A stretch of DNA of 64,000 nucleotides from Deltaproteobacteria bacterium (GTDB lineage Bacteria > Desulfobacterota > Binatia > UBA9968 > JAJDTQ01): NCBI GenBank assembly GCA_028818775.1, contig JAPPNE010000084.1, forward strand, positions 1 to 64,000, written 5' to 3'. Positions 4,456 to 39,857 of the stretch are shown in pieces (within the stretch, counting starts at the first letter, position 1; each line of letters begins with the position of its first letter). The notes beneath the pieces are model-generated. The model was not told the origin of the DNA. It saw only the letters and a program-made list of their open reading frames with translations, and did not search any database. The position numbers and the translations under genes were made by a program.

Positions 4456-4495
4456 CAAAAGGGCAAACGGACGGCTCTCCAAGACGAGAGGTACC

Positions 4496-5065
4496 ATGAA
4501 CCGGCTTTTGTCAGGCTGGCGCGGCTGGCTCGCCGCGGGTCTGGTTGGCTGCACGACCGTCGCCGTGGCGTTGGCGATGCCGGTTCCCCTAACCGAGCCT
4601 CCCCCGACGGCTCCCCCGGCGCCGCTGCCGGTACTCTCCGACGAGGTGGCTGCGGTGGCGGCGAGAGACGACTTCAAGATTTTTCTCCAGAGCGCGCGCT
4701 GGGGCGACCACGGGCCGAGGACGCCAAAGCGCGCAGGCTCGCCCGCACCGGCCGCGCCGCCTGCTCCCACGACCAACCCTGAACTCGCCAGGATGAACTA
4801 CGTGGGGTTGATCACCATCCATGACCAGCGAACCGTGTTGTTCGACGTGCCGGATGTGGGGGTTGTCCGGTACGTACCGGGTGACAGGCTCCCCGACGGC
4901 CGCGTACTGGTTTCGGTCACGGATGACAGTCTGACGCTCAGAGCGGATGGCCGCGCCGACGAAGTGCTCGTGCTGTTCCCGACCATAGAGAACAACACCC
5001 GGAACGCCGCGCCGAAATCCGACGAAACCGAAATGCGCTCCCGCGGCTCCAAGGGTTCGAGATGA
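4496..5065 (+). CDS. gspC: Type II secretion system protein C-like (GspC, inner-membrane/periplasmic clamp)
   Basis: This is a 189-residue protein with one N-terminal membrane helix (about residues 8-28), a Pro-rich linker, then a compact C-terminal segment. In that segment, MNYVGLITIHDQRTVLF and VVRYVPGDRLPDGRVL look like the homology region of GspC/PilP proteins, which links the secretin to the inner-membrane platform. No PDZ domain is visible after it. Its stop overlaps the start of gspD (ATGA), and this placement directly before the secretin is the usual one for gspC. Overall sequence match is weak, so the name rests partly on position. A GAGAGG ribosome site precedes the ATG. Confidence 0.68.
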   Translation: MNRLLSGWRGWLAAGLVGCTTVAVALAMPVPLTEPPPTAPPAPLPVLSDEVAAVAARDDFKIFLQSARWGDHGPRTPKRAGSPAPAAPPAPTTNPELARMNYVGLITIHDQRTVLFDVPDVGVVRYVPGDRLPDGRVLVSVTDDSLTLRADGRADEVLVLFPTIENNTRNAAPKSDETEMRSRGSKGSR

Positions 5066-7206
5066 ACGTTTCCATTCGGTATTTCCGTACCACCCTGCTC
5101 CTGGCGCTGGCGTGCCTGGTGCCGGCGTGCGCGGAGGTTCAGGTGGAGCCGTTTCCCGAGCCGATCCGGCCGGCCAGGGAGCAGCCGCCCACGCCCGCCG
5201 TGGCTCCGCCGCCCGCGGACGAGATTCCCGCCCAAGACGGTACCCGCACATCCCGGGCTCCGGGTGTTGTCATCCAGCGGTCGGTGGCGGAAGGCATTAC
5301 CGACCGGTTGGGCGAGGATCTTGTCGGAGATCCCATCCAGGTCAGCTTCCACAACATTCCTCTTGTGGCCTTCATAAACGAGATCTTCGGTGAAGAACTC
5401 AAGATGTCTTTCGTGATCTCGCCTGGCTTGCGCCAGAAGGTCGATCTGGTCACCCTCAAGCTGACCGAGCCGCTGGCGCCGCGCCTGCTGTTTGCAACCG
5501 CCCGCCGCGTGCTGCGGGAATTCGGCGTCGATATCGTCGCCACCGACGAGGGGATCCTCACTTTCGTCCTGAGCCAGGACATCGCCTCACGGGACGTGCC
5601 CCTGTTCGTGAGCGGCCGCGCCCTGCCGGATGTCCCGCCCAGCCATCGGGTGATCTTCCAGCTCGTGCCGCTCAAGGTGGTGCGCGGTCCGCAGGTGAGG
5701 GGATGGCTGAGCGCGGCATTCGACCGGCAGGACCTGGAGATCATCGAGGATCCGGACCGCAACGCCCTACTGCTCAAGGGCAACAGCGACATGCTGGTGC
5801 GGGCGCTCGCCATGATCGAGGTCTTGGACCAGCCGCTGCTCCGCGGGCGCTACGGCGTGATCGTCGAGCCGGTCTTCATGAGGTCCCAGGACCTGGCCAA
5901 GGCGCTGAACGAGGTTCTTCACGCCGAAGGATACCAGTCGAGCGTCGGAACCGCCGGGAAGGGCGGCTCGATCATTCTCCTCGCGCTGCCCGAGGTGAAC
6001 AAGATGGTCGCCTTCGCGGGAGATCAGGCCACGCTCGACCATGTCGAGGAATGGGCCCGAATACTGGATACCGGCCGCAAGGAGTCCATCGAGACGGCGC
6101 TCTTCACTTACGAGGTTCGCAACACGCAGGCTGAAGAGTTGACCGAAACCCTGAACCGGATGCTCACTCTCGGCGTGACGGGGAAGGGAAAGGCGGCGCC
6201 TGCACCGAAGCCCGCGCCGGCGACCGGGGCCATGGGTACCCGGCGGGGGGCGCCGCCCCCGCGGCCGGCCGAGGCCGAGCCGCCCAGCGACCGCATCGTC
6301 GTCGACAAGAAACGGAACATGTTGCTCTTCCGCGGCTCCGGCAAGGAATGGGCGGAGATCCGAAGCGTCATCGAGAAACTGGATAAATCCGTGCCGTTGG
6401 CGCTGATCGAAGTGCTGATCGCCGAGGTGACGCTCACGGACCAGGAGAAGACGGGCATCGAGTATCTCTTCAGGGGCAGCATCAGTGACTACGGCCTTGT
6501 CGGCAAGCTGGGGGGGCTCGGTATCGGTGAATCAGGCCTGTCGGTGATTCTCGACAGCGCGGGGGAGACTCGCGCGCTGCTCAACCTGTTCTACCGTGAC
6601 GACCGGGTCGTGATCCGGTCGCGGCCCCGTCTTCTCGTCAAGAGCGGTGAGACCGCCACCATCGACGTCGGCAACGAGATCCCTGTGATCACCCGTATTT
6701 CCGATGACAATCGTCAGAGCGCCAATTCGATCAACATCCTGCAGGACGTCACCTACCGGAAGACCGGAGTACAACTCGAGATCAAGCCGATCGTCCAGGC
6801 CAACGGACTGGTGGACCTTCAAATCTCGCAGCAGCTCAGCGAGGCCCGTCCGACGGCGGCGACGAGCCTGGCGGGCACGCCGACCATTCTGAACCGGCAG
6901 ATCAGCACCAGCCTGACGCTCCGGGACGGCGGCTCCCTGTTGCTCGGCGGACTCATTTCCGGCAGTCAGAGCGCGGGTGAGACCGGTGTTCCCATCCTCG
7001 GACAACTGCCCCAGATAGGCCGGCTGTTTCGCGCCGATTCGGTCGAGAAAGACCGGACCGAGCTGATGATCATGGTCACTCCTTACGTGATCACGGATCA
7101 CGAGGAGGGCTGGGAGCTCACCCGGCGGATTCGCGACCGTCTGGAACTGCATTCCGACATGGCTGGGGAACAGAAGAGCTCGCAGCGGCTTCAACCCGAC
7201 AAGTGA
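5062..7206 (+). CDS. gspD: Type II secretion system secretin GspD (lipoprotein form)
   Basis: This is the outer-membrane secretin, 714 residues. It begins with a lipoprotein-type signal peptide whose lipobox is LVPAC (cysteine at about residue 23), so the secretin is probably acylated and may not need a separate pilotin. An N0 domain (around residues 90-170) is followed by N1-N3 ring domains containing the recurrent VPLKVVRG / RALAMIEVLD and VVDKKRNMLLFRGS patterns. The C-terminal secretin barrel has the classic VPILGQLPQIGRLFR and ELMIMVTPYVI motifs. A Pro/Ala-rich insertion lies at about residues 375-410. The start overlaps gspC by four bases and the stop overlaps the peptidase start (GTGA). 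Confidence 0.96.
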   Translation: MNVSIRYFRTTLLLALACLVPACAEVQVEPFPEPIRPAREQPPTPAVAPPPADEIPAQDGTRTSRAPGVVIQRSVAEGITDRLGEDLVGDPIQVSFHNIPLVAFINEIFGEELKMSFVISPGLRQKVDLVTLKLTEPLAPRLLFATARRVLREFGVDIVATDEGILTFVLSQDIASRDVPLFVSGRALPDVPPSHRVIFQLVPLKVVRGPQVRGWLSAAFDRQDLEIIEDPDRNALLLKGNSDMLVRALAMIEVLDQPLLRGRYGVIVEPVFMRSQDLAKALNEVLHAEGYQSSVGTAGKGGSIILLALPEVNKMVAFAGDQATLDHVEEWARILDTGRKESIETALFTYEVRNTQAEELTETLNRMLTLGVTGKGKAAPAPKPAPATGAMGTRRGAPPPRPAEAEPPSDRIVVDKKRNMLLFRGSGKEWAEIRSVIEKLDKSVPLALIEVLIAEVTLTDQEKTGIEYLFRGSISDYGLVGKLGGLGIGESGLSVILDSAGETRALLNLFYRDDRVVIRSRPRLLVKSGETATIDVGNEIPVITRISDDNRQSANSINILQDVTYRKTGVQLEIKPIVQANGLVDLQISQQLSEARPTAATSLAGTPTILNRQISTSLTLRDGGSLLLGGLISGSQSAGETGVPILGQLPQIGRLFRADSVEKDRTELMIMVTPYVITDHEEGWELTRRIRDRLELHSDMAGEQKSSQRLQPDK

Positions 7207-7874
7207 TACCGGCCGCGATGCGGGAAGCTCATTGCTGTCACCCAGCGGCCTTTCGGCTCGGACTTCCCAGTCTGATTCCTCTTCTTCCATGGGTTCTCAA
7301 GCGTGGCCGGTGCGGCTATTGCGGCGGGAGAGTTTCGCTGGCTGTCCCGTTTATCGAACTCGTCATGGTTGCGGTGGTGGTGTTGACGGCCGTGCAGGCG
7401 CAGGATATCGCGCACGTTGTCGCAAGCGGTCTCTTCGGTTGGCTCCTGATTGTGTTGATGGACACCGATCTCCGGCACCAGATTCTTCCTGACAGTCTGA
7501 CCGCGGCGCTCCTGGCGAGCGGCCTTCTGGCGGCGCTGTTCTTGTCGGCGCCGGGCTTTGCCGAGGCATTTGCCGGCGCGGCGATAGGCGCCGGCAGCTT
7601 CTTCTTGCTGCGCTTCTTCTACTTTCGCTACCGCGGCATCGAGGGCCTCGGGCTGGGGGACGTCAAGTTGATGGCCGGGCTCGGCGCATGGTTGGGCGCG
7701 TCCTGGTTACCCTTGCTGGTCATCGTTGCCGCCGTTTCCGGGCTGCTGTCGGCATTCCTGCGGGCATGGAGCGACGGAGCCAGAGTCTCGGCGACGAGCG
7801 CGGTACCCTTTGGCGCCTACCTTGGCGGCAGCGCGCTTGTGCTCTCGTACTTGAGGGCGGCGGGCGTCTGGTAG
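7203..7874 (+). CDS. gspO: Prepilin peptidase (A24 family), N-terminally short
   Basis: This is an inner-membrane aspartyl protease, about 223 residues, that removes leader peptides from pseudopilins (GspG-K). The two catalytic-type aspartates are visible, in LIVLMDTDLRHQILPD and in the GLGLGDVKLMAGLGAWLG motif. The N-terminal region is shortened. The usual first membrane helix and the first CxxC of the zinc/methylase part are missing; only a CC pair and a later CGYC remain, before a recognisable IPLLPWVLKRGRC segment. Family members are usually 250-290 residues. The GTG start overlaps the gspD stop; an ATG at 7218 is the alternative. Position inside the T2SS operon supports a dedicated role. 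Confidence 0.87.
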   Translation: MIPAAMREAHCCHPAAFRLGLPSLIPLLPWVLKRGRCGYCGGRVSLAVPFIELVMVAVVVLTAVQAQDIAHVVASGLFGWLLIVLMDTDLRHQILPDSLTAALLASGLLAALFLSAPGFAEAFAGAAIGAGSFFLLRFFYFRYRGIEGLGLGDVKLMAGLGAWLGASWLPLLVIVAAVSGLLSAFLRAWSDGARVSATSAVPFGAYLGGSALVLSYLRAAGVW

Positions 7875-7980
7875 TGATAGGCCGGTCCATGGCCACGTCC
7901 CTCCGGCAGGCGCCTCTCGTCAGGACGATGCCGCTTTTGATATGATACGGCGCGGGTTACGACAGGATCAGGTCCTCACG

Positions 7981-9696
7981 ATGAACAAGATGCCGGAACC
8001 AAGACCGGACGCCGCATCGCAGGGCGCGTTTTCCGAAAAGCGTCTTGCCGAGTTGCTCGTCGAAAGAAACGACGTCCAGCAGGCGGATCTGGACAATGCT
8101 CTCCGGATTCAGCGCTCCGTCGGCGGCCGTCTCGACGTGTTGCTGCTCCGGACCGGGACGGTCTCGGAAGACCTGCTGCTGCAACGGCTCGCCGAACTCC
8201 AGGGCGCGACCTACCTCCGCAAGGCCGAGGATCTGCCGGACAGCCTCGAGGTGCACCGGTTCGTTTCCGAGTCGCCGATCAAACGGGAGTGGTTTCTGGA
8301 CAACGGCGTTCTGATGTGGCGCCGGGACGGCCGTCTCTTCTGCATCGCCCGGGATATCCGCGATCACGGAGTGCTCGCCACCCTTTCCTACTTCTATCCG
8401 GGCGAGGCTGTGACCTTCTGCCTCACCGCCGGCCACCAGATCGACCGTCTGCTCGATGCCGTTGACGGGGGGCAGGCGGCCGAGCGCCTTCGTGCCGGCG
8501 ATAGCGCCAGACAACTCGCCGAAGTGGCCGAGGAGGCTCCGGTCATCGAATTCGTCAACAACCTGCTCGCACAGGCCGTGGACCTGAAGGCATCGGACAT
8601 CCACATCGAACCGGCTGAAGAGCAGTTCGCGGTCCGGATGCGTGTCGACGGCGTGCTGCAAACCAGGTTGGTGCAGCCGGTGGAGCGCTTCCCGGCCATC
8701 GCATCCCGGGTCAAGCTTATATCCGGCCTCGACATCGCGGAACGGCGGTTGCCCCAGGACGGCCGGATCTCGACCCGGATCGCGGGACAGGAGATGGACA
8801 TCCGGGTATCGACGGTGCCCTGCGCGTTCGGCGAATCGGTAGTGCTGCGGATGCTGGCGAAGGAGCGGGCGGACCTCGTTCTGACGAATCTGGGCATGGA
8901 AACCGACCATCTCGCCCTGTTTCGAAGCTGGTGCCAGACGAGCAGCGGTATCGTGCTGGTCACCGGGCCCACTGGGTCCGGCAAGTCCACCACGCTCGCC
9001 GCGGCGCTCACCGAGATCGACGACGGCGTCAAGAAGATCATTACGGTGGAAGATCCGGTCGAGCACCAGATGCCCAACATCACGCAGATCCAGACCCATG
9101 CGGAGATCGGCTATACGTTTGCCCGGGCGCTGCGCGCCATTCTGCGTCAGGACCCGGACGTCATCATGATCGGCGAGATACGTGATCTTGAGACCGCGGA
9201 GATCGCCGTGCGCGCGGCGATGACGGGGCACCTGGTGCTGTCGACGGTCCATACCAACGATGCGCTGTCGAGCTTTACCCGCCTCATCGACATGGGAGTG
9301 GAGCCGTTTCTGGTGTCGGGATCGGTCCGCGGGGTCCAGGCACAACGGCTGGTGCGCAAGGCATGCTCGGGTTGTTCGATCCACACCGCCCCCCCGGAGG
9401 GTTTCCGCGCGCGCCTCGAACACCTTCCGCCGCACATGCTCGGCGATCGGTGGGTGGCTGTCGCCGGTTGCGATGCTTGCGGGGGCACCGGCTACAGCGG
9501 CCGGACCGGCATCTACGAACTCGTTCCCGTGTCCGGCGAGATCCAGGAACGGATCGTATCCGGGGCAAGACTCACGGAGTTGAAGACACTGGCGCTTCGT
9601 CAGGGCCATCGCACTCTGTTGGAGGATGGCCTCCTGAAGGCGTCTCATGGGTGCACCACAGTGGAGGAGGTTGCGCGCCTGGGGATCGAGGAATGA
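7981..9696 (+). CDS. gspE: Type II secretion ATPase GspE
   Basis: This is a cytoplasmic hexameric ATPase that drives pseudopilus assembly, 571 residues from the ATG chosen here. An in-frame ATG at 7942 would add 13 residues and has no ribosome site. The N-terminal MshEN/GspE-N domain (about 20-150) precedes the ATPase core. Walker A GPTGSGKS is at residues 329-336, and an Asp-box/Walker B region follows around RQDPDVIMIGEIRDLETAEIA. A His-box sits in LVLSTVHTNDA. A zinc-type pair of cysteine motifs (CSGC and CDAC followed by GGTGYSGRTGIYE) lies near the C-terminus, as in most GspE proteins. gspF starts 6 bases after its stop. Confidence 0.95.
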   Translation: MNKMPEPRPDAASQGAFSEKRLAELLVERNDVQQADLDNALRIQRSVGGRLDVLLLRTGTVSEDLLLQRLAELQGATYLRKAEDLPDSLEVHRFVSESPIKREWFLDNGVLMWRRDGRLFCIARDIRDHGVLATLSYFYPGEAVTFCLTAGHQIDRLLDAVDGGQAAERLRAGDSARQLAEVAEEAPVIEFVNNLLAQAVDLKASDIHIEPAEEQFAVRMRVDGVLQTRLVQPVERFPAIASRVKLISGLDIAERRLPQDGRISTRIAGQEMDIRVSTVPCAFGESVVLRMLAKERADLVLTNLGMETDHLALFRSWCQTSSGIVLVTGPTGSGKSTTLAAALTEIDDGVKKIITVEDPVEHQMPNITQIQTHAEIGYTFARALRAILRQDPDVIMIGEIRDLETAEIAVRAAMTGHLVLSTVHTNDALSSFTRLIDMGVEPFLVSGSVRGVQAQRLVRKACSGCSIHTAPPEGFRARLEHLPPHMLGDRWVAVAGCDACGGTGYSGRTGIYELVPVSGEIQERIVSGARLTELKTLALRQGHRTLLEDGLLKASHGCTTVEEVARLGIEE

Positions 9697-9702
9697 CCGG
9701 CG

Positions 9703-10899
9703 ATGCGGGAGTACGAGTACGAGATCATCGATCGTGACGACCGGGTCGTGAAGGGACGCGCCAAGGCGGCCTCGGTGAACGAGCTTGTTCGCGGCTTGAA
9801 TGCCGAGGGCCATACCGTCGTCGAGGTGAAGGAACCCCGGGCCGCGCGGCCGTCGCCGTTCCGCCGCCGGCCCGGCGTACAGGACCGCATAGTGGCGCTT
9901 CACGAGTTGGCGACGCTGCTCGAATCCGGAGTTTCTCTGGGCAACGCCGTACAGGCCCAGGCCGACGGCACCCGGCACCCGGCACTGACGGCTTCCTTCG
10001 AGGCGATGGCCATGGCGCTGGTGCGTGGAGAGAGCTTTCTCCAGGCCCTTCGCGCCGGGCACCTGTCCCTCCCCGAGTATGTCTACCAACTGGTTGAAGC
10101 CGGCGAATTGAACGGTCAGCTTGCCACCGCGCTCCGCCAGGCCGTCGAGCAGATGCAATACGATCAACGTGTGGCCTCGGAAATCCGGGGCGCGCTGCTC
10201 TATCCGGCAATCCTGGTCGTTTCCGGCTGCACCGCGGTCCTCATCGTCTTCGTGTTCGTCATCCCGCAGTTCTCCGGCCTGCTGGAGAGCGGCAACGAGT
10301 TGCCGCTGCTCGCGGAAGCCGTGTTGCGCGCCGGACTATGGTTCGACGCCAACGGCTGGCTGCTTGCCGGCGTATCTGTCATCTTCGCCGTCGCCATTGC
10401 CGCCCTCTCACGCAGTGAAGGGGTACGCCAACAGGTACGGGACACGTTGTCCGCCTTGCCGGTCCTCCGTGACTGGTTTACCGAAGCCGATACCGCCAAA
10501 TGGGCCTCGCTCATGAGCGCCATGCTGGCGAGCCGCGTCGGCATCATGGACGCCCTCCCCCTCGCCGCGCACAGCGTCCGGATTTCCCGCCGCAGGGCGA
10601 CGCTGGAACAAGCCACCGGCGATGTCCGCGGCGGAGCATCCCTGTCAGAGGCGCTTGAGAAGCGCCGCGCGCTCACCCCCACCGGCTACAACCTGCTCCG
10701 GGTCGGCGAGCAGTCGGGCCAGCTCGCCGAGATGCTGCACGCCCTCGCAACCCTCTGTGACGAGAACGGCCGGCGGCGCATGAAGCGATTCCTTACCCTG
10801 ATCGAGCCGCTGGCGGTCGTGCTGGTCGGCGGCTTTCTCGGTCTAATCATGATCGGGGTCATCCTTGCCATCACTAGTGTGAATGATGTGACGTTCTGA
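9703..10899 (+). CDS. gspF: Type II secretion inner-membrane platform protein GspF
   Basis: This is a polytopic inner-membrane platform protein, 398 residues, typical length for GspF/PilC. Two T2SSF domains are visible, at about residues 65-190 and 265-390. Each carries the helical bundle pattern (LHELATLLESGVSLGNAV; WASLMSAMLASRVGIMDAL) and ends in hydrophobic helices, for example ILVVSGCTAVLIVFVFVIPQF and the C-terminal VVLVGGFLGLIMIGVIL. It interacts with GspE and GspL in the assembled machine. It is the last + strand T2SS gene; 216 bases separate it from the first giant gene. The other half of the system (gspG to gspM) lies on the opposite strand beyond that array. Confidence 0.94.
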   Translation: MREYEYEIIDRDDRVVKGRAKAASVNELVRGLNAEGHTVVEVKEPRAARPSPFRRRPGVQDRIVALHELATLLESGVSLGNAVQAQADGTRHPALTASFEAMAMALVRGESFLQALRAGHLSLPEYVYQLVEAGELNGQLATALRQAVEQMQYDQRVASEIRGALLYPAILVVSGCTAVLIVFVFVIPQFSGLLESGNELPLLAEAVLRAGLWFDANGWLLAGVSVIFAVAIAALSRSEGVRQQVRDTLSALPVLRDWFTEADTAKWASLMSAMLASRVGIMDALPLAAHSVRISRRRATLEQATGDVRGGASLSEALEKRRALTPTGYNLLRVGEQSGQLAEMLHALATLCDENGRRRMKRFLTLIEPLAVVLVGGFLGLIMIGVILAITSVNDVTF

Positions 10900-11028
10900 T
10901 GTGTTGGTGCGATTCGTGATGCGCGAAATCGGCTCGGGGCACGTTTGCGGTCGTAGGGGCAGACGGAAACAACAGAGTTTCCCAAATCCAATCGTCCTTC
11001 CACTAGAGCAAAAAAATTCCTCTTTAGT

Positions 11029-11058
11029 TTGACCAGGGTGAGTCCGCAGTGGTAATTC
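11029..11058 (+). promoter_or_regulatory. Weak candidate sigma-70 promoter before the giant-protein array
   Basis: The 216-base gap between gspF and the first giant gene has an A/T-rich patch near 11008-11030, unusual for this GC-rich region. A TTGACC hexamer lies at 11029-11034, followed 18 bases later by TAATTC (11053-11058). The -10 match is poor. It is reported because a separate promoter would be expected if the array is regulated apart from the secretion genes; a read-through transcript from gspF is equally possible. Confidence 0.25.
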
Positions 11059-11115
11059 TGTATCGTTTCGAACGCCGAAGGGCCGTCCAGCGCGGTATCG
11101 GCGAGGGTTGGAACG

Positions 11116-16323: not shown

Positions 16324-16336
16324 GGGAGGCGCGGAC

Positions 16337-17605
16337 ATGAGACGACGCACGTTTCTCAAGGCCCTGCTGGGGGTGGCCGCCATGGCACCCGGCTTCCGGC
16401 TGCCGCTGGTGCACGCCCAGGACGGCTACAGCGGCAAGCTGTTCGTGTTCGTCCAGGCGGACGGCGGCTGGGACGTGACGAGCTTCTGCGACCCCAAGAT
16501 GAACACCCCGGGCGAGCCGATCATCAACCACTGGGCGGAACACGATGAGACCCGCCAGGTAGGCAATCTGAGTTATGCGCCCTTTGCCAAGAACCAGGAG
16601 TTTTTCGAGAAGTACCACCGGATGATGCTGGTCATTAATGGCGTGGATGCGCAGACGAACGCGCACACGGTGGGTATCGTGCACAACTGGAGCGGGCGGA
16701 ACTCGGAGGGATATCCGACGCTGGGGGCGTTGGCGGCGGCGCATTTTGCTCCGGCGCTGCCGGTGGGGTACCTGAGCTTCGGGGGGTTCTCGAACACGTC
16801 GGGCCTGACGCGGTTCACGCGGCTGGACGATCCTCGGCTATTGCGGGAGATCGCGGAGCCACGGGCGGACATGGGACGTTTCATCAGCGACGCGGACTGG
16901 GAGGCGATGGGGCGGCACCGGGCGAATACGGTGGCGCGGTTGGCATCCGCCCCGGGTCTGTTGCCCGGGGACGAGGCTCACCTGGAGTTCTACCGTACGG
17001 CGTTCGCCACGGAGGGTCTGAAGGCATATGCGGATGCGATTCCGCCGGAAGACCAACTCGAGGATCAGGAAGAGTGGGAGGACTTCCGGAGTACCCTGCG
17101 TCGTCAGGCGCAGTTGACGGTGCTGGCATTCAAGACGGGGGTGGCGGTGTGCGCGGACCTGTGGCTGGGAGGGTTCGACACGCACACGAACCACGACCCT
17201 CCGCACGAGTGGCTGTTGGGGAACCTGACGGGCGGTGTGGACTACCTGTGGGACTACGCGGAGGAGCACGGGGTGGCGGACCGGATGGTGGTGGTGATCG
17301 GGTCGGACTTTGGGAGGACGCAGCACTACAACTCTGTGAACGGGAAGGACCACTGGCCGATCGGGAGCTACGTGGTGATGGAGAAGAACCAGAGTTGGAC
17401 GGGGCAGGCGGTAGGGGAGACGGACGAGTTGCATTTTACGCAGAAGATGGATCCCGCGACGCTACGGCGGGATGACACGAACGGGACGATCATCTATCCG
17501 AAGCACGTACACAAGGCGTTGCGGGAGCATCTGGGGGTAGCGCAGACGGCGGGAGCGTTGCGGTTTCCTTTCAACAACACCGAAGACTTCCCCTTCTTCA
17601 GCTAG
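16337..17605 (+). CDS. DUF1501 family protein with Tat signal
   Basis: This is a protein of 422 residues that starts with a twin-arginine signal (RRRTFLK, then a hydrophobic stretch and a VHA-QD cleavage site). It would therefore be folded before crossing the inner membrane. The body fits DUF1501, an alkaline-phosphatase/sulfatase-like fold: a GGWDVTSF element near residue 41, GFDTHTNHD around 277 and the FGRTQ...DHWP motif around 330-345. In planctomycetes and other bacteria DUF1501 genes pair with DUF1592- or DUF1549-type cytochrome proteins, exactly the partner next door. It begins 13 bases after paralogue 1 and ends 5 bases before paralogue 2. It is the only copy in the array, so one DUF1501 protein may serve all three giants. 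Substrate unknown. Confidence 0.88.
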   Translation: MRRRTFLKALLGVAAMAPGFRLPLVHAQDGYSGKLFVFVQADGGWDVTSFCDPKMNTPGEPIINHWAEHDETRQVGNLSYAPFAKNQEFFEKYHRMMLVINGVDAQTNAHTVGIVHNWSGRNSEGYPTLGALAAAHFAPALPVGYLSFGGFSNTSGLTRFTRLDDPRLLREIAEPRADMGRFISDADWEAMGRHRANTVARLASAPGLLPGDEAHLEFYRTAFATEGLKAYADAIPPEDQLEDQEEWEDFRSTLRRQAQLTVLAFKTGVAVCADLWLGGFDTHTNHDPPHEWLLGNLTGGVDYLWDYAEEHGVADRMVVVIGSDFGRTQHYNSVNGKDHWPIGSYVVMEKNQSWTGQAVGETDELHFTQKMDPATLRRDDTNGTIIYPKHVHKALREHLGVAQTAGALRFPFNNTEDFPFFS

Positions 17606-17610
17606 GGACG

Positions 17611-22509: not shown

Positions 22510-22511
22510 GC

Positions 22512-25500: not shown

Positions 25501-27695
25501 ACCGCAACCGGGCACGAGCGCGTTGGACCTACTATCACTTCCTCGGAGTGGACGTTGAGAAATCCGCGTCGCGGACCACGGATCCGGTCGCTTTGGCCGA
25601 TACTAACAACCCGACGATGTACAACCCCGCCTGTACTGTTTGCCACAGTGTTCTGGATCCCGTGGCGGGGGCCTTTCAGGACTATGGCGACGACGGAGAC
25701 TACAAAGACCAGTGGGGCGGCATGGATTCGCTGCACGAACTCTACAAGAGAGACTACGGAAAATCGCAGAACGTCTTAGCGGAATCCTGGCAGGATCGGG
25801 AAACCCTCACTTGGCCGCTGTTACTGACGGCCGGCATCCAACCGGTGAGGGTGACCTTCACTAACCATTTCTGGGATGAAGCTGCCCGTGAGGGCGGGGA
25901 ACTGTATCTCGATCGCTTGGTGGTGCTCGACTCTCAGGGCCGACAGGTCGCCAGTGTGGAGTTCGAGGATTTGGGACCGTCCTTGGGGCAGTGTGGAGGT
26001 AGGCGGCAAAATCCCGCCACCGGACGCGAGGATCACATCGTGTTGTGGAGTGGCGCCTGGTGCCTATTCCGCATCGATGTCGAAGTCCCGGCGCTCGATA
26101 CTTATACCGCCGAGGTCGTTGTTTGGTCTGACGGGCATGATGCGCGCTATGAACATGGCGGTTATGCAAGGTTGGCGGTCATTGCCAATCCCTATGAAGA
26201 GGGCGACACATGGTACCGCGACATGCGGGTCCCCGGCTTTAGTCACGAACAGGCGCCCGGGGCAGAAGACAGTCTGCAATGGCTGGTGCAGCAGATCGTC
26301 GACGACCGTCGTTTCGCCGAGGCAGCGGTCAAGTTCTGGTGGCCGGCGATTATGGGGAGAGAGTTGGCTGAGCCGCCAGCGGAGGAGGGGGACGCGGACT
26401 TCGTGGGGCAACTGCTTGCCGCTAATGCCCAGAGTGCCGAACTGAGACGGCTGGCGCATGGGTTTCGGCAGGGCTTCCATGGCGGGTCGGCGTACAACCT
26501 CAAGGATCTTTTGGTGGAGTTGGTGCTTTCGAAATGGTTCCGGGCGGATGCGCTGGACGATTCGGATCCGGCGCGCCGCGTGGCGCTCCGCGATGCCGGC
26601 GCGCGGCGACTGCTGACGCCGGAAGAGTTAGCTCGGAAAACGCTTGCCCTGACGGGTTATCGATGGGGCCGGCAAATCAGTACCGGTTGCTGGGACAATT
26701 GCGAGGCTTCGCATGACCCCTTGACGGACGACTTTCAGCTACTGTACGGCGGCATCGACTCGGACGGGATCACGAAGCGGGCACGGAACATGACGTCGGT
26801 GATGGCCGGGGTCGCCAAGCGGCATGCGGTGCGAACGAGTTGTCCCGTGGTCCTGCGCGAGGTATTCCTCCTACCTGACGAAGGCCGGAAGCTGTTCGCA
26901 GGTGTCCATGAGAATATGACGCCCCGTCTGGATTCAAGCACTTCCTTCGAGATCGCGTCTGAAGAGGACTTCGAAACGCTTTCGCTCACAGAATCGTTGC
27001 CAGACGGTTCCAGCACGGTAAGACTGAGCTTTATCAATGAAGGTTCGGGCCGACACATACGGCTTGACCGAATGGACGTTCGCGACGCGGGGGGTCAGAT
27101 TGTCGCCAGCTACGAGCTCGAGAATTTGGAGGCGCCCCGTGATTGTAACCATCCAGTCCACGACCACTTCGCCCTACACTGTCGTGGGTGGTTGGATGTT
27201 CCGGTCGAGGTCCCGGCGGCGGGGAACTACACGCTGGAAATCATCGCAAGGGCCGATCGGGGCGGGGACGAGCTTCCACGACTGGAGGTATGGGCGCTGA
27301 ATGCGACGCTCTCAGGCAGTGGCGCTGCTGCGATCCGGGACAAGCTAGTCGAATTGTATGAGAAGCTCCTCGGTGTCGAGGTCACGCCCCATTCCCCGGA
27401 CGTGGACGCCGCTTTCAACCTGTTCGTGGAGGTCATGGAACGGGGACAAGGGTTGGACGAAACTCACTTTCTTTGGTGGGAGTGTGGCTTCGACGACATA
27501 TATTACTTCAGCGGGCTCCGAGACGACATCCTGGTGGAAATTCAACATGGAGGGGGAAGCTACTATGATTACGACCATGCCCGTAAGGACGACTTCATGT
27601 TCGGCTTTGACTTCTCTGACATCCACTATTCTGCTCGCACGTGGGTGGTGGTCCTGACGTATCTCCTGACAGACTACCGCTACCTTCAGTTGTAG
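22512..27695 (+). CDS. Giant secreted DUF1592/DUF1588-like multihaem protein, paralogue 3
   Basis: This is the third tandem paralogue, 1727 residues, beginning two bases after the stop of paralogue 2. It has two pre-core haem modules (CINCH at 580-584 and CIYCH at 679-683) and the core CTVCH at 1041-1045, as in paralogue 1. The N-terminal repeats are nearly identical to paralogue 1 over long stretches, while the segment after residue about 850 is distinct in each copy. Two CBM60-like segments and the same C-terminal motif are present. The stop lies 13 bases from the stop of the convergent gspM gene; no clear terminator hairpin is visible between them. Covalent haem is inferred from CxxCH only. 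Confidence 0.87.
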   Translation: MVGTKEHRSRTWGFRRAWVFSLALAGALSMAPPAVSMTGPVNQGAAAGPRLIAATASAPITVPFFTQSTSTGSVSYLRIINHSDESGTVSILAYDDAGTTYGPATLELDAGEAVHFNAEDLETGNADKGLGDKEQGFREGIGTGAGAWRLELTSALDIEVFSYSRTEDGVVSGMQEVVPRTGSGHWIGLFNPASTIGRESRLRLVNRGAAPAAVTIEGVDDAGESGSGAVRLTLPAWGARQVTAEELESGDGEGLTGALGDGTGRWRLLVTAGGAIEVMNLLASTASGEMTNLSPGPVAPVDGDDGATTIHEVGLFPAGSEEGLEGVLRIVNRTRQAGRVSIEAIDDTGAKFGPVTVYLSALKGLVLTSEDLEEGNSSKGVFRGTGAGTGDWRLRLSTSLEIEVQSYVHPLGVQDGLLSAMHTLVPRGAKGHRVTLFDPGEVAGSSGSLRLINPSETEAAVTIRGVDGTGATSGGEVRFTLGVGESRELTVSELEEGTGTGLVGALGDGTGRWHLSIESNRRIGVMSLLSGPGGRLANLSAQPRGTIGEFLDAPAGSGDTATAAEVFSAHISPSVVQSRCINCHVQGGVSGHTRLVFQRATNPDHEALNLQTFANFLSTVVGGASRILHKIQGVSHGGGEQVPADSDDFAQMERFLAALEGPPELFSRHISERVVQSRCIYCHVMGGRSGHTRLVFQPETNPDHEALNLATFENFLAEVEGGASRILNKIQGVSHGGGEQVPADSDDFAQMERFLGRLDSGVVPAAITVDTLFDPVRMAPLRKTLRRAALIFAGRVPTEEEYASIYGGARAFRKAIRSLMTGPEFHEFLIRGANDRLLTNRRGGIIDGGSGFVDYANEEYARKKIAHESGDWDPFNQWLNKVQYGVRRAPLELIAHVVENDRPYTEIMTADYIMANPFAAKAYGATTSFDDSADPREFKPSKITKHYREGDGYDAEYDPVVGATRVFDPGPLKTDFPHAGVLNTNSFLFRYPSTATNRNRARARWTYYHFLGVDVEKSASRTTDPVALADTNNPTMYNPACTVCHSVLDPVAGAFQDYGDDGDYKDQWGGMDSLHELYKRDYGKSQNVLAESWQDRETLTWPLLLTAGIQPVRVTFTNHFWDEAAREGGELYLDRLVVLDSQGRQVASVEFEDLGPSLGQCGGRRQNPATGREDHIVLWSGAWCLFRIDVEVPALDTYTAEVVVWSDGHDARYEHGGYARLAVIANPYEEGDTWYRDMRVPGFSHEQAPGAEDSLQWLVQQIVDDRRFAEAAVKFWWPAIMGRELAEPPAEEGDADFVGQLLAANAQSAELRRLAHGFRQGFHGGSAYNLKDLLVELVLSKWFRADALDDSDPARRVALRDAGARRLLTPEELARKTLALTGYRWGRQISTGCWDNCEASHDPLTDDFQLLYGGIDSDGITKRARNMTSVMAGVAKRHAVRTSCPVVLREVFLLPDEGRKLFAGVHENMTPRLDSSTSFEIASEEDFETLSLTESLPDGSSTVRLSFINEGSGRHIRLDRMDVRDAGGQIVASYELENLEAPRDCNHPVHDHFALHCRGWLDVPVEVPAAGNYTLEIIARADRGGDELPRLEVWALNATLSGSGAAAIRDKLVELYEKLLGVEVTPHSPDVDAAFNLFVEVMERGQGLDETHFLWWECGFDDIYYFSGLRDDILVEIQHGGGSYYDYDHARKDDFMFGFDFSDIHYSARTWVVVLTYLLTDYRYLQL

Positions 27696-27708
27696 CCCTC
27701 CCCCTTTC

Positions 27709-28302
27709 TCACTTGACCGGCCCCTCCTTCACCCCCACGAAATACGACGAGACGATCAGCACCAGATAGCCCTCATTCGGCCCGTGGCGCTTCAAGTCGA
27801 GCCGATCGACGATCATCTTTTTCGGATGTGTCGAGAGCGCGTGGACGATGCGAAGCTCCAACCCCGGCCGGTAGCTGGCGTCGGCGCGGATCTGCACGCG
27901 CCAGACTCCCGGCAGGTCCGGCACGGGCCGGCTGGAACCGGTGCGGAGCCGGGTCTTCCGTAAGCCGAGACGGCTCAACAATCCGCCGAGAGCGGACTGG
28001 AGCTGTGCCTGCGCCAGCCCTTCGGTCTCGGCCTTCCAGAACATCGAGCTGATCCGGCGATGGGTCTCGCGTTCGGCGTCCAACAAGGCAAGGCTGTCCT
28101 TCTGCCCCAGCAAGGCCTCGGCTCTTGCCAGTTGCTCGGTCACGGCTTCGTAGTCGCGATGCGCCTCCGCCAGACGGTCGGACTGCCAGAGGATCGCGTA
28201 GCCGAGCAGCAGGCCCAGAATCAGCACGACCCCCCACCGCAGCCGTGCATTGGCGTCCAACTCGGCTGCCAGCGGATGAAAGAGGCGCGACGCGACGCTC
28301 AT
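27709..28302 (-). CDS. gspM: Type II secretion protein M-like (GspM)
   Basis: This is a bitopic inner-membrane protein of 197 residues: a short N-terminus, one membrane helix (about residues 22-39), a coiled-coil-like stretch (about 45-85) and a C-terminal ferredoxin-like domain. This plan matches GspM/PilO, which pairs with GspL. Direct sequence similarity is low, so the name rests on architecture and on its place after gspL; the two overlap by four bases. It is the last gene of the - strand operon and ends 13 bases from the giant-gene array. Confidence 0.75.
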   Translation of the reverse strand: MSVASRLFHPLAAELDANARLRWGVVLILGLLLGYAILWQSDRLAEAHRDYEAVTEQLARAEALLGQKDSLALLDAERETHRRISSMFWKAETEGLAQAQLQSALGGLLSRLGLRKTRLRTGSSRPVPDLPGVWRVQIRADASYRPGLELRIVHALSTHPKKMIVDRLDLKRHGPNEGYLVLIVSSYFVGVKEGPVK

Positions 28303-29384
28303 TCCCGCACCTTGAGGGTGAACTCGACGCGGTCACGGTTGCGATGCGGCTTGGCCTTGACTTGGTCGAACAGCGGCAGGGCTTCGAGTGAACGGATGTA
28401 GGAGATCGGGTCGGGGTTGCGGTCCTCGATCAACACCGAGAGTTCTCCCCGCTGATAGCGCCATTCCCGGAACTCGGCGTCCGGGCTGGGAATGGCGCGG
28501 TCGACGGCGTCCATCAAGCGGGCCTGCGACGGTTCCCGGAGCGCGTCCAGCAATGCCAAGTTGGTCCGGCGCAGGTTCAGCAAGGATCTCCGGGCCTCGA
28601 AGATCGGCGTGAGTTGTGCCTGCAAGGTGTCGAGTCCGCGTGCGGCTGTTCCCTCGAGATGCCGGATTTTCCAGTACCGTGCTTCCTGCCAAAGCAACAC
28701 GACAACCAGCGGAAGGAGACATGCGGCGGCGAGAAGCCGCTGATTCGACGCCAGCCACTCCCGCGGATCGGCGGATACGGGCCACGGTTCCGGCGCCATG
28801 GTCCCGCTGGCCGCAGCCGGCATTTCACCGGCGGCAAGCGATGACGCATCGGCATCGCCTACCTGTCGCGCGAGGAACCAGCTTAGCTGGCTCGCCTGCG
28901 GTTCTTCCGGAAACCAGAACGAGTCGGCGAGCACATCGGCTCGCCAGTACTGGATTTCGAAACCCTCCACGCAGGGCTGTAGGTAAAGCCCGTCCGGTTT
29001 TCTCTCGTAGAAGACCGTCTCGGGAAGGATCCGGGGGCGCGGCGTCCGGTCGCCGCCCGTCGGCACCCTCGTGGCCGATTCCGCTCGGGCCGAGGCGACC
29101 TTGTCACTGTCCCAGAACCAGACCATGGCGACGCCGCCACGCCACGCGGCGTGGTAGCCGGTGTGCTCGAAGGGGCTCCAGAGCGGCAGCTTGAAGTCGA
29201 GCGCCGCACGGCGGCGGCCACGCGGGACCGCGGTGAAGTCCTCGCGGCGGTACATGCAGAGTCCGCGCCCGACGACCCAGTTGGACGAGGACGACCGGAA
29301 TCCGAGCGGGCGCACGCCCGCCGCGGTCTGGATGGCGTTGGGTCTACCGAAGAAGAGGCGTCGCAGCTTCGAGAGGGCGATCAC
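28299..29384 (-). CDS. gspL: Type II secretion protein L-like (GspL)
   Basis: This is a 361-residue protein with a cytoplasmic N-terminal part (about 1-215), one membrane helix (about 217-233) and a periplasmic domain of about 125 residues that ends in a small ferredoxin-like fold. GspL docks GspE through its actin-like cytoplasmic domain. Actin-type motifs are not obvious here, so this may be a divergent form, with position between gspK and gspM as the main support. The start overlaps the gspK end by 41 bases; a later start is possible. Confidence 0.72.
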   Translation of the reverse strand: MIALSKLRRLFFGRPNAIQTAAGVRPLGFRSSSSNWVVGRGLCMYRREDFTAVPRGRRRAALDFKLPLWSPFEHTGYHAAWRGGVAMVWFWDSDKVASARAESATRVPTGGDRTPRPRILPETVFYERKPDGLYLQPCVEGFEIQYWRADVLADSFWFPEEPQASQLSWFLARQVGDADASSLAAGEMPAAASGTMAPEPWPVSADPREWLASNQRLLAAACLLPLVVVLLWQEARYWKIRHLEGTAARGLDTLQAQLTPIFEARRSLLNLRRTNLALLDALREPSQARLMDAVDRAIPSPDAEFREWRYQRGELSVLIEDRNPDPISYIRSLEALPLFDQVKAKPHRNRDRVEFTLKVRE

Positions 29385-30390
29385 CGGGTGTTCTCGAATC
29401 GTTACGGTTACGGGCGGTGGCGGGTTCCGAGTACCGGTAATCTCTTCGCCACGGCGCGGACTTGCCGAGAGGCGTCAATTCAATACCGACGACGGTGCGA
29501 GGCCCCAAGGTATCATGCCAGACCACGAGCCTCAAGAAGTTGGACGGGACCACCGCCACGTCCATGGCGTCGATTTCCAGATGCTTTCCGCTCAACATGG
29601 CGACTTGGGTGAGTCGCGACAACGAGCCCTTGCGCCGTTCTTCCAAAACGCCGCGCAGCCCTTGCGTATCCAGATCGAGCAGGGCCGCCAACACCTCGGG
29701 GTGCATCGTGTTGAAGTTGTAGCTGGACACCGGACGCATGGTGAGCAGCGGTCGCAGCCGTGACCACTGCGCCGGCGCCACCAGCTCCTCGATGCCGAGA
29801 ACCTCCATCAATTCAAGCGGGCTCGACATGAGCCAGTTGAGGGGCGGCTCCTTGCCCCGGAGCCGGTACTCGTGACGTTCCGCGCCGTTGAGGTTCAGGG
29901 AGTCATCGGAATCGATGTAGTCCTCGATGCGGGCGGTGATCTGCGCCACGTCCTCTTCGGGAACCCCCACCCGCCCGAGGAAGGACCCTAGCGGCGGGAA
30001 CTTCGGCGTATTGACCGGTATGAGACCGCCCTCGTCCTGAAGCGAGAAACGCGCGCCGCCGAGGCCGGCATAGGCGGCGCCGGTCACTCGCAGCTCCCCG
30101 AGCGACCCGAAGCGCGACGCGGTCCGGTCCCGCCGCGGGTCGGAGAAACGCTGTGTCTGTTCCAGGATCAGCGCATGATGGTTCATGCGGCCGGTGGCGA
30201 GGAGATAGGTCACCGTGGCCTCGGTGTTGCGCCGCTCCAGTTCGGCCTCGAAGACGCGCTTGTCTTCGATGGCGAACTCGACGTCGGCCGTCACCACGTG
30301 GTTGATGTAGGCGCCGAGCAGCGCCAGCGCGGCGAGCGCCCACAGCGTCGTCACCAGCACAAAGCCCTTGGCGTTGCCGGGGCCGGCCAT
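29344..30390 (-). CDS. gspK: Type II secretion minor pseudopilin GspK
   Basis: This is the tip pseudopilin, 348 residues. The ATG at 30390 has GGGAGGAG upstream and overlaps the gspJ stop (TGATG); a longer open frame to 30537 is discarded. The leader MAGPGNAKG is followed by FVLVTTLWALAALALLGAY. As is usual for GspK, the +5 position is not glutamate (Thr here). The rest matches GspK: a large insertion domain with DYIDSDD and a helix-rich region, and a helix-hairpin-helix-like segment at VLGIEELVAPAQWSRLRPLLT. It caps the pseudopilus with GspI and GspJ. Confidence 0.93.
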   Translation of the reverse strand: MAGPGNAKGFVLVTTLWALAALALLGAYINHVVTADVEFAIEDKRVFEAELERRNTEATVTYLLATGRMNHHALILEQTQRFSDPRRDRTASRFGSLGELRVTGAAYAGLGGARFSLQDEGGLIPVNTPKFPPLGSFLGRVGVPEEDVAQITARIEDYIDSDDSLNLNGAERHEYRLRGKEPPLNWLMSSPLELMEVLGIEELVAPAQWSRLRPLLTMRPVSSYNFNTMHPEVLAALLDLDTQGLRGVLEERRKGSLSRLTQVAMLSGKHLEIDAMDVAVVPSNFLRLVVWHDTLGPRTVVGIELTPLGKSAPWRRDYRYSEPATARNRNDSRTPGDRPLEAATPLLR

Positions 30391-30980
30391 CAGAACTCCT
30401 CCCGGTAGTTCGGGACCGGCTCGGGGAACAGGTCGAAGCGCGCAAGCCACAGGACCCGGCCGTCGGCCGAGCGCAGACGGACCATGCGCGGGATGTGCTC
30501 CCCGCTCCTGTGGGGCGGCGGCCACCTCTCGTGCCACTCGCCCGAGGAACCGGCATATTGGAACCCGAGTGTCCGGTCATGCCGGCTCTGGACGGTCCAG
30601 GGTTGTGCGCCGCCCTCCGTGTAGAGGACACGGCCCGAGTCGATGGACCATCGGATCCGCACCGGCTGGCCTGCCCGGGCGGCCAATGGCTGCAGGGTAA
30701 CGCCTTCGAAGGAACGATCGTCACCGGTGAAGCGTCTTGTCGCCAGACGGGACGGCACCATGGCCGCCACCGTCGAGAGGAACCAGTGCTGCCGAAGGGC
30801 CGCAAGGGATGACTCGCGGTGGATGCGCTTGACCGCTCCGTACTGGCCGAGGAAAAAGCCCGTGCCCTGGATAACGAGAGTGCCCAGCAGCGAGACCAGC
30901 ACGAGGACCACGAGCATCTCGACCATGGTGAAGCCCCCAATGGTGTCGCCGCCGGTCGCGGCCTGGTGACGGCGCGTCAT
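30390..30980 (-). CDS. gspJ: Type II secretion minor pseudopilin GspJ
   Basis: This minor pseudopilin has 196 residues. The start at 30980 gives a short leader ending in GG before FTMVEMLVVLVLVSLLG, with the +5 glutamate expected for pseudopilins. A longer open frame to 31379 has no leader-like N-terminus. The C-terminal part is a beta-rich domain of the usual GspJ size. It overlaps gspI by four bases and gspK by one base, so translation of the three is probably coupled. Confidence 0.88.
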   Translation of the reverse strand: MTRRHQAATGGDTIGGFTMVEMLVVLVLVSLLGTLVIQGTGFFLGQYGAVKRIHRESSLAALRQHWFLSTVAAMVPSRLATRRFTGDDRSFEGVTLQPLAARAGQPVRIRWSIDSGRVLYTEGGAQPWTVQSRHDRTLGFQYAGSSGEWHERWPPPHRSGEHIPRMVRLRSADGRVLWLARFDLFPEPVPNYREEF

Positions 30981-31414
30981 GGGGCCGGCTCCCGCACCTT
31001 CTCGTATCCCGGCACTCGCAAGCGCCAAGTGCCGAGAGACCGCCCCGCGTCTCGCAGCTCGAACTCGACCTCGTAAAGGCCGATCTCGAAGTACCCTCGC
31101 TCCCCGGTCACGGTCTGGCTCTGGCGCGGCGGTTCCAGCAGCCTCGCGGACCAGAGCAAGTCGATCCCGTCCAGCTCGGCTCGCCCCGCGCTCGCCTCGC
31201 GCGGATTGACGCCGGCGAGATGCTCGATCGCATGACGGGCGGCCGTCATCTGCCGCGAGGCGTCGTGTACGCGTCCCAGCGCCGTGAGATTCGTGTTGAA
31301 AAGCGCGTAAAGCGCCATGGCGGCGCCGGCGAAGACAACCATGGCGACCATGGTCTCCAGGAGGGTGAAGCCCGCGCACCGGGCCATTGCGGTGCTAGTC
31401 GCGGTTCTGGTCAT
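30977..31414 (-). CDS. gspI: Type II secretion minor pseudopilin GspI
   Basis: This minor pseudopilin, about 145 residues, has the processing site ARCAG-FTLLETMVAMVVFAG with +5 glutamate. The start is uncertain: ATGs at 31426, 31414 and 31387 all keep the leader and none has a clear ribosome site. The first two overlap the gspH end, so the third gives the shortest leader. The rest of the protein is the short beta domain expected for GspI. It nucleates the pseudopilus tip with GspJ and GspK. Confidence 0.85.
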   Translation of the reverse strand: MTRTATSTAMARCAGFTLLETMVAMVVFAGAAMALYALFNTNLTALGRVHDASRQMTAARHAIEHLAGVNPREASAGRAELDGIDLLWSARLLEPPRQSQTVTGERGYFEIGLYEVEFELRDAGRSLGTWRLRVPGYEKVREPAP

Positions 31415-31898
31415 CAGTGGCAACACGGCAGTAGGGTGGTTCGAGGGCGAGGCGGATGTCCACTCTGCCTTCGTGACGCAAGGTCAGTCCGGATCCGAGG
31501 CACACTCCGTTGGCCTTGACCAGCAGGGGCCGGCTGAGTTCCATCGACCATCCCGTCGGTAGATCGATGGTGTAGGGGTCGGCGTCCGGACCGAGCGGCG
31601 CGGCGGGCCGCGGTTCCGGCAATGCCCTTGATTCCGCGCCGGACGCCCGGTTGGACGAAACCACGTAGGTCCGTCCGTGGCTCAACGCGGTCCGGCCAAG
31701 GCCCGCAAACTGGTCCAGGATATATTCGCGTTCCGTCTTTCCCTGGATGCTCGTGTAGAGGCGCTCCAGATTAGGCGCCGCCAGGGCGGCGATCATGGCC
31801 ATCAGCAACAGGACGACCAGCAGCTCCAGCAGGGTGAATCCGCTGGCGTGGGGCCGGGTGGTCCGAGCCCGTCTCCATTTTAACGGAATGCTGTCCAT
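31395..31898 (-). CDS. gspH: Type II secretion minor pseudopilin GspH
   Basis: This pseudopilin has 167 residues, with a 20-residue leader ending in ASG before FTLLELLVVLLLMAMIAALAAP, +5 glutamate present. Its position between gspG and gspI, and a C-terminal beta domain of the GspH type, support the name. It would link the major pilin shaft (GspG) to the GspIJK tip. The start at 31898 is 15 bases downstream of the gspG stop. Confidence 0.9.
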   Translation of the reverse strand: MDSIPLKWRRARTTRPHASGFTLLELLVVLLLMAMIAALAAPNLERLYTSIQGKTEREYILDQFAGLGRTALSHGRTYVVSSNRASGAESRALPEPRPAAPLGPDADPYTIDLPTGWSMELSRPLLVKANGVCLGSGLTLRHEGRVDIRLALEPPYCRVATDDQNRD

Positions 31899-31913
31899 GG
31901 CGATCGAAAACGA

Positions 31914-32357
31914 TCAGCGCGATGAAGGTGCTTTTGGAAGGTAGCCGATATCGGCATTGATGCCTTCTCCGCCATCCTTCGAGTCGGCGCCCAGCGAATA
32001 GAGCGCGAAACCCTGGAGGTTGTCGGCGGGATACTTGTATCGATAGGGCGTACGCCAGGGGTCGTCAGGGACCTCGTCGTCGAGATAGGGTCCGCGCCAG
32101 AAATCGGCGGCCTCGGGAGAAGGACGGACCAGGGAGGCCAGCCCTTCCGCCGTCGTCGGGTATCGGCCCAGGTCGAGCCGAAACGCCTGCAGGGCGCCGC
32201 GCAGCATCTTGATCTGCGTTTCGGCGGTCTGCACCTTCGATCTGTCGATCCTGCCGAACAGCCGCGGTCCGACCAGTCCCGCCAGCAGCCCGAGGATGAC
32301 CAGGACGACCATGAGCTCGATGAGAGTGAATCCTGCCGTCCGGTGAGAACGCGACAT
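31914..32357 (-). CDS. gspG: Type II secretion major pseudopilin GspG
   Basis: This is the major shaft pseudopilin, 147 residues from the chosen ATG. The leader MSRSHRTAG is cleaved before FTLIELMVVLVILGLLAGLVGP. The core carries the hallmark GspG pattern RLDLGRYPTTAEGLASLV and DDPWRTPYRYKYP, and ends with a likely calcium-binding SLGADSKDGGEG loop. An in-frame ATG at 32399 would overlap a good -10 box, so the start at 32357 is preferred. It leads the - strand operon gspG-H-I-J-K-L-M. Confidence 0.95.
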   Translation of the reverse strand: MSRSHRTAGFTLIELMVVLVILGLLAGLVGPRLFGRIDRSKVQTAETQIKMLRGALQAFRLDLGRYPTTAEGLASLVRPSPEAADFWRGPYLDDEVPDDPWRTPYRYKYPADNLQGFALYSLGADSKDGGEGINADIGYLPKAPSSR

Positions 32358-32397
32358 TGTTGACACGGCCGATCCCAGAAAGCGTCGGTATTGCAAC

Positions 32398-32426
32398 ATT
32401 GTAACGAAACGATGCGGGTATGGCAG
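32398..32426 (-). promoter_or_regulatory. Candidate sigma-70 promoter for the gspG operon
   Basis: On the - strand a CTGCCA -35 box (4 of 6 consensus; + strand TGGCAG at 32421-32426) is followed after 17 bases by a TACAAT -10 box (5 of 6; + strand ATTGTA at 32398-32403). The transcript start would be about 33 bases upstream of the gspG ATG. It lies in the 100-base gap after the lipoprotein gene, so the pseudopilin operon can be independent of that gene. Confidence 0.45.
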
Positions 32427-32457
32427 TGAGTGCCGGGATGTTACCACGGTCCACCAG

Positions 32458-39777: not shown

Positions 39778-39824
39778 GTTTGTGAAGGCCGGAAACGAAC
39801 GGAGAGTCGGGCGCATTTCCGTTC

Positions 39825-39856: not shown

Positions 39857-39857
39857 C

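What the first reader, a model, noticed from the sequence alone, without database searches (positions are those of the whole stretch)
4496..32357. A complete type II secretion system split in two halves that converge on a giant-gene array
gspC, D, a prepilin peptidase, E and F lie on the + strand (4496-10899). gspG, H, I, J, K, L and M lie on the - strand (27709-32357). Between them sit only three giant exported paralogues and one DUF1501 protein. In most genomes gsp genes are collinear in one operon. Here the second half is inverted and the two operons point into the same 16.8-kb block. The simplest reading is a T2SS locus with an inserted and amplified cargo cassette. T2SS export of surface c-type cytochromes is known in Shewanella and Geobacter.
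Basis: partly seen in the sequence, partly recalled or inferred. Interest (0 to 1): 0.8.

Follow-up and report, generated by a model that had tools for sequence, protein, structure and literature searches.

The report
Transferred secretion machine with its cargo
An alphaproteobacterium whose sister species lack it carries a 30-kb island that holds a complete type II secretion machine plus the giant haem proteins it probably exports, and its 'split' look is best explained by a local inversion rather than by cargo inserted into an older machine.

Summary
gspC-D, a prepilin peptidase and gspE-F (+, 4496-10899) and gspG-M (-, 32357-27709) face each other across three 1632-1735-aa paralogues and one Tat-signal DUF1501 gene.

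The proposed history (a cargo cassette inserted into a T2SS locus) is not supported. All eight congeners lack this T2SS and the giants; in six the flanking genes are contiguous. The whole ~30.2 kb (about 4464-34690) is therefore an acquired island. Two sponge-associated MAGs outside the genus carry the same T2SS and cargo pair at ~80% identity (LepA only 60-61%), in two other gene orders. One has a collinear gspC-M facing DUF1501-giant; one inversion of that block plus duplication of the giant reproduces the window.

The giants have N-terminal beta-sandwich repeats, haem domains, a DUF1592/DUF1588 core and two CBM-like domains. 25 of 27 related loci lack a nearby T2SS, so the link is lineage-specific. 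The repeat module is common in gammaproteobacterial sponge symbionts that mostly carry this T2SS type; in the window genome it occurs only on the giants.

Best reading: a transferable T2SS with its own surface-haemoprotein cargo. Export itself is inferred.

The parts
4464..34690 (.). whole acquired island; borders approximate (homology to congeners ends/resumes here)
   Evidence: empty-site alignments in congeners G001, G002, G003, G004, G007, G008
4496..5065 (+). gspC (XpsC/XpsN-like, short, weak profile match)
   Evidence: NF041515 E=0.005 only; position; orthologues in L003 and L078
5062..7206 (+). gspD secretin, probable lipoprotein secretin
   Evidence: PF00263 145 bits, TIGR02517 291 bits (below cut-off 351); lipobox-like N-terminus
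7203..7874 (+). prepilin peptidase (A24)
   Evidence: PF01478 73.7 bits, PF06750 40 bits; also in the L003 and L078 clusters
7942..9696 (+). gspE ATPase
   Evidence: PF00437 421 bits; TIGR02533 531 bits
9703..10899 (+). gspF
   Evidence: PF00482 149 bits; TIGR02120 218 bits
11116..16323 (+). giant G1, 1735 aa, CxxCH at residues 576, 675, 1037
16337..17605 (+). DUF1501 protein with twin-arginine-type signal (MRRRTFLK)
   Evidence: PF07394 63.5 bits against cut-off 27
17611..22509 (+). giant G2, 1632 aa, CxxCH at residues 579, 941
   Evidence: PSD4/DUF1592 27.4 bits over cut-off 23.3
22512..27695 (+). giant G3, 1727 aa, CxxCH at residues 580, 679, 1041
22677..24176 (+). N-terminal module of G3: four ~120-aa beta-sandwich repeats (also in G1 and G2)
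   Evidence: AlphaFold2 mean pLDDT 88.2, pTM 0.89; single repeats resemble ASRT; distribution in 22 genomes
27709..28302 (-). gspM
   Evidence: NF040576 XpsM 45.8 bits, below cut-off 60
28299..29384 (-). gspL (assigned by position and orthologues)
   Evidence: no profile match; orthologues in L003, L004, L084
29344..30390 (-). gspK
   Evidence: PF21687 30.9 bits (cut-off 26.2), NF037980 53 bits
30390..30980 (-). gspJ
   Evidence: N-terminal prepilin motif
30977..31426 (-). gspI
   Evidence: PF07963, TIGR01707 28.5 bits, below cut-off
31395..31898 (-). gspH
   Evidence: PF07963, TIGR01708, below cut-off
31914..32357 (-). gspG major pseudopilin
   Evidence: PF08334 114.6 bits
32458..34608 (-). 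TbpB-like beta-barrel lipoprotein inside the island; paralogues elsewhere in the genus; start codon approximate
   Evidence: PF01298 33.2 bits; DNA paralogues at 69-70%

Best explanation
This is a horizontally acquired island that carries a complete Xps-like type II secretion system together with its own cargo operon. Shown: the gene content, the empty site in congeners, and the same T2SS clade linked to the same giant-DUF1501 pair in two genomes outside the genus, in different layouts. Inferred: an ancestor had gspC-D-peptidase-E-F-G-H-I-J-K-L-M facing a convergent DUF1501-giant pair, as in L004; one inversion of the block from gspG to the giant turned the second half of the T2SS around, and the giant was then copied behind DUF1501. 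Inferred mechanism: the giants enter the periplasm by Sec and receive c-type haems; DUF1501 enters by Tat already folded; the T2SS carries both to the cell surface. There the N-terminal beta repeats act as a stalk or surface/sorting module, the haem domains and DUF1592/1588 core do redox chemistry, and the CBM-like domains hold a polymeric substrate.
For: Empty site: the opp genes and the amidohydrolase genes are 29-236 bp apart in six congeners, 30.2 kb apart here. Congeners lack window-type GspD, giants and any close DUF1501. GspD-E-F-G are 79-81% identical to L003 and L078, and DUF1501 79-80%, while LepA is 60-61%. Clades agree: T2SS 100/100, DUF1501 100/99, giant core 99/97. DUF1501 and gspM are convergent neighbours in L004 and, apart from G2/G3, here. 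The N-terminal repeat module is on giants only in the window genome and G058, but on 9-39 matching places in ten gammaproteobacterial MAGs. Genomes with the module carry GspD >=49% identical to the window's in 10 of 12 cases, genomes without it in 0 of 10 (relatedness not corrected). The Tat-type and Sec-type signals fit T2SS cargo.
Against: No expression or secretion data. 25 of 27 related giant loci have no T2SS within the fetched flank (up to 10 kb; many contigs end sooner), and Entotheonella and Latescibacterota pairs sit in genomes with no close GspD, so this T2SS is not obligatory. The order of rearrangements is not fixed by the trees (WIN+L003 91/92 in one, WIN+L004 90/68 in the other). 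The giants' function is unknown; the helical core has no credible match in the PDB.
Confidence: 0.62

Rival explanations
1. One reading: an ancestral collinear T2SS locus received an inserted and amplified cargo cassette between gspF and gspG.
For: Gene order alone; the giants are amplified here.
Against: Congeners have no T2SS at this site or of this type. A collinear relative already holds DUF1501-giant next to gspM. Insertion alone does not explain the reversed gspG-M.
Confidence: 0.1
2. The neighbourhood is a shared landing site only: T2SS and giant-DUF1501 pair travel together but the giants stay in the periplasm or leave by another route.
For: Most relatives of the pair are not linked to a T2SS; sister pairs occur in genomes without a close GspD.
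Against: Linkage kept in three different layouts in three genomes with agreeing trees; repeat module and this T2SS type co-occur.
Confidence: 0.23
3. Assembly or binning artefact: the inversion or the triplication is false.
For: Fragmented MAG (189 contigs); giants share up to 96% nucleotide identity in stretches.
Against: Longest exact match between giants is 59 nt; no long inverted repeats; all frames intact; both flanks belong to the genus.
Confidence: 0.05

Closest known systems
Xps type II secretion system of Xanthomonas
   Same: GspM matches the XpsM model; XpsN is the GspC homologue (PMC11981180); the unlinked relatives' order E-F-G-H-I-J-K-L-M-C-D resembles xpsE, xpsF and the xpsG-xpsD operon of that paper; secretin with lipobox-like N-terminus, as reported for XpsD and HxcQ (PMC6617341).
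   Different: gspC-D moved to the front with a prepilin peptidase; second half inverted; cargo genes inside; carried on an acquired island.
pul (pullulanase) and hxc T2SSs with few substrates and a linked substrate gene
   Same: A T2SS that serves one or few substrates; PulA is the only reported T2SS substrate of K. pneumoniae (PMC12802150). That pulA and lapA lie next to their T2SS genes is from my own knowledge.
   Different: Cargo here is a DUF1592/1588 haemoprotein family with a DUF1501 partner, in several copies.
Shewanella T2SS and outer-membrane cytochromes MtrC/OmcA
   Same: A T2SS is implicated in moving c-type cytochromes to the surface (PMC1974784).
   Different: The giants have 2-3 CxxCH motifs, not ten, and CBM-like and repeat domains; no sequence relation was shown; mtrAB-like partners were not searched for.
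RoxC N-terminal third-haem domain
   Same: Weak profile match (best E=5.6e-8 among family members; 10 of 26) over the N-terminal haem domain; invariant C-x-x-C-H and a second invariant His 52 residues on, like H44/H98 of RoxC (PMC10837239).
   Different: The matches whose position was seen are confined to the haem domain; the catalytic part is different, so the giants are not Rox proteins.
Planctomycete-type DUF1592/DUF1588 plus DUF1501 gene pairs
   Same: PSCyt3 matches 26/26 and PSD4 16/26 members at E<=0.01; DUF1501 directly next door.
   Different: N-terminal beta repeats, CBM inserts and T2SS linkage.

Membership tests
Type II secretion system | secretin GspD, ATPase GspE, platform GspF, major pseudopilin GspG, GspK | tested here: met
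Type II secretion system | GspC, L, M, H, I, J | tested here: inconclusive
   prepilin motifs and XpsM-like match below cut-offs; C and L by position and orthologues
Type II secretion system | prepilin peptidase present | tested here: met
Type II secretion system | secretes folded periplasmic proteins | not testable with these tools
   needs a gspD mutant
Xps/Hxc subtype | XpsM-type GspM and lipoprotein secretin | tested here: inconclusive
   45.8 bits against cut-off 60; LVPAC here, LAAC/MAAC in relatives
DUF1592/DUF1588 haemoprotein family | PSD4 and PSCyt3 domains with CxxCH | tested here: met
   G2 PSD4 27.4 bits over cut-off; PSCyt3 22-25 bits, below cut-off 27; CxxCH invariant in 26/26
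DUF1501 family | PF07394 over gathering score | tested here: met
   63.5 against 27 bits
Rubber oxygenase (Rox) | full-length RoxC model | tested here: not met
   14.5 bits against cut-off 900, haem domain only
Genomic island | absent from close relatives with contiguous flanks | tested here: met
   six congeners
Genomic island | integrase, tRNA site or flanking repeats | tested here: not met
   no integrase among the island's genes; no obvious repeat at the two borders; a tRNA scan was not run

The most novel reading that the evidence does not exclude
The N-terminal four-fold beta-sandwich module is a shared client or surface-sorting module for this T2SS type: machine and module spread together, and any domain behind the module is exported. 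That would give a natural, testable sequence handle on how T2SSs choose their substrates, which is still unknown (PMC11981180).
Probability: 0.25. Interest if true: 0.78.

Novelty: new variant of a known kind. Interest (0 to 1): 0.55.

Why it matters
T2SS genes are often one operon, and in Legionella the substrate genes are scattered rather than on an island (PMC6617341). A self-contained T2SS with peptidase and cargo that moves between distant lineages, with a clean empty site and three layouts to compare, lets machine-cargo coevolution be studied directly. It also offers a candidate client module to test.

Tried and rejected
Solved relatives of the giant core and of DUF1501 by sequence: none credible. 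Fold search of the core (model pLDDT 81.8): only beta-sandwich/CBM-type matches and large low-TM hits. Plasmids as vehicle: DUF1501 hits two Vibrio/Photobacterium replicons at 30-33%, GspE at most 44% among the listed records. Promoter/terminator scan of the gspF-G1 gap found nothing. Papers joining DUF1501 to T2SS: none in the held library. Full-length Rox identity rejected.

Full report
OBSERVATION. The + strand holds gspC, gspD, an A24 prepilin peptidase, gspE and gspF; the - strand, read from 32357 to 27709, holds gspG, H, I, J, K, L, M. The middle holds only G1, DUF1501, G2 and G3, tightly packed (gaps 13, 5, 2 bp) with 13 bp between the convergent stops of G3 and gspM. GspC and GspL are assigned mainly by position and by orthologues. 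Giants and DUF1501 occur nowhere else in this genome.

THE UNIT IS AN ACQUIRED ISLAND. Eight congeners have no secretin closer than 29-36%, no clear DUF1501 homologue (one hit at E=3.8e-4) and no giants (one weak hit to a repeat in G007). In six of them the opp transporter genes that precede gspC and the amidohydrolase genes that follow the island lie 29-236 bp apart, at 85-95% DNA identity to the window. Alignment places the borders near 4464 and 34690. The T2SS therefore did not pre-date the cargo at this site; both are part of what was gained. The island also contains a TbpB-like lipoprotein gene that has paralogues in the genus, so a later or separate gain of that gene is possible. No integrase or flanking repeat was seen.

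RELATIVES. A search of 84,980 genomes with G3 gave 27 loci. Two are linked to a T2SS of the same type. L003 (MAG named Defluviicoccus, RHO2_bin_2) reads gspD- gspC- | giant+ DUF1501+ peptidase+ E+ F+ G+ ... M+. L004/L078 (gammaproteobacterial MAG RHO1_bin_72) reads C D peptidase E F G H I J K L M + facing DUF1501- giant-. The other 25 have the giant, usually with DUF1501, but no T2SS in the fetched flank; some flanks are short. In several of those genomes a T2SS of the same subfamily lies elsewhere, in the order E-F-G-H-I-J-K-L-M-C-D. That the RHO bins come from a sponge is my reading of the isolate names, not a tool result.

TRANSFER. The concatenated GspD-E-F-G of the window is 79-81% identical to L003 and L078, and DUF1501 79-80%, whereas the highly conserved LepA is only 61% and 60%. 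The three form clades in the T2SS (100/100), DUF1501 (100/99) and giant-core (99/97) trees. The congeners' 16S carries the targets of two alphaproteobacterial probes (probe sequences from memory), so the window is probably alphaproteobacterial. L003's placement by LepA is unsure. Direction is inferred: the repeat module is on the giants only in the window genome and G058 but is widespread in gammaproteobacterial symbionts.

HOW THE SPLIT AROSE. Inverting the segment from gspG to the giant in the L004 layout gives C D peptidase E F > giant > DUF1501 > < M ... < G, which is the window without G2 and G3. The DUF1501/gspM convergent adjacency is kept. G2 and G3 are extra copies behind DUF1501. This is the simplest history for the window but the branching order of the three is unresolved. 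After the inversion gspG-M need their own promoter; that was not shown.

THE GIANTS. Residues ~56-555 are four ~120-aa beta-sandwich repeats (AlphaFold2 pLDDT 88.2), each resembling the ASRT fold (TM up to 0.81 by target length), with weak DUF5719 and Slr4 S-layer profile matches. Then come one or two haem domains with invariant CxxCH and a second invariant His, weakly matching RoxC's extra N-terminal haem domain (PMC10837239). The DUF1592/DUF1588 core has an invariant CxxCH motif, and is interrupted and followed by CBM-like sandwiches. Between paralogues the N-terminal half is mostly 78-96% identical in DNA, while stretches of the C-terminal half fall to 58-70%. This suggests homogenised N-termini and diversifying C-termini; gene conversion is an inference.

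MECHANISM. Inferred: Sec export and haem attachment for the giants, Tat export for DUF1501, then T2SS passage to the surface, where the repeats form a stalk or sorting module and the haem/core/CBM parts act on a polymer. T2SS-dependent surface cytochromes exist in Shewanella (PMC1974784). How T2SS substrates are recognised is unknown (PMC11981180). The repeat module co-occurs with this T2SS type in 10 of 12 genomes against 0 of 10 without it, but the genomes are related and incomplete, and G067 counts on fragments only. The GspD threshold of 49% was chosen after seeing the data; counting GspD down to 42% gives 3 of 10 in genomes without the module.

VERDICT. Real, more than a chance layout, and better explained as a mobile T2SS-plus-cargo island with a local inversion than as cargo inserted into a T2SS. 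T2SS clusters in several loci (Legionella, PMC6617341) and linked substrates are known, so this is a new variant of a known kind.

Noticed in passing
window 32458-34608: TbpB-like two-lobed lipoprotein inside the island, with ~70% DNA-identical paralogues elsewhere in this genome (C85) and in congeners.
   Followed up: partly
window ~39797-39857: A ~40-bp sequence repeated at near 100% at dozens of places in this genome and congeners, often in inverted pairs a few tens of bp apart: a dispersed repeat of the genus.
   Followed up: no
L003:178-1155 and L003:5647-6333: Two copies of the same reading-frame sequence beside the T2SS island of the Defluviicoccus MAG, possibly an insertion element; no Pfam match.
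   Followed up: no
L078:175-3012: ApbE, DUF3570 and redoxin genes directly upstream of the collinear T2SS in G059.
   Followed up: no
L084:16376-19900: A beta-repeat-module protein with a different C-terminal part about 4 kb from gspD in G068.
   Followed up: partly
window 44509-47376: Neighbouring Big_9/cadherin-like protein with a DUF4189 end and an inverse-autotransporter barrel gene.
   Followed up: no
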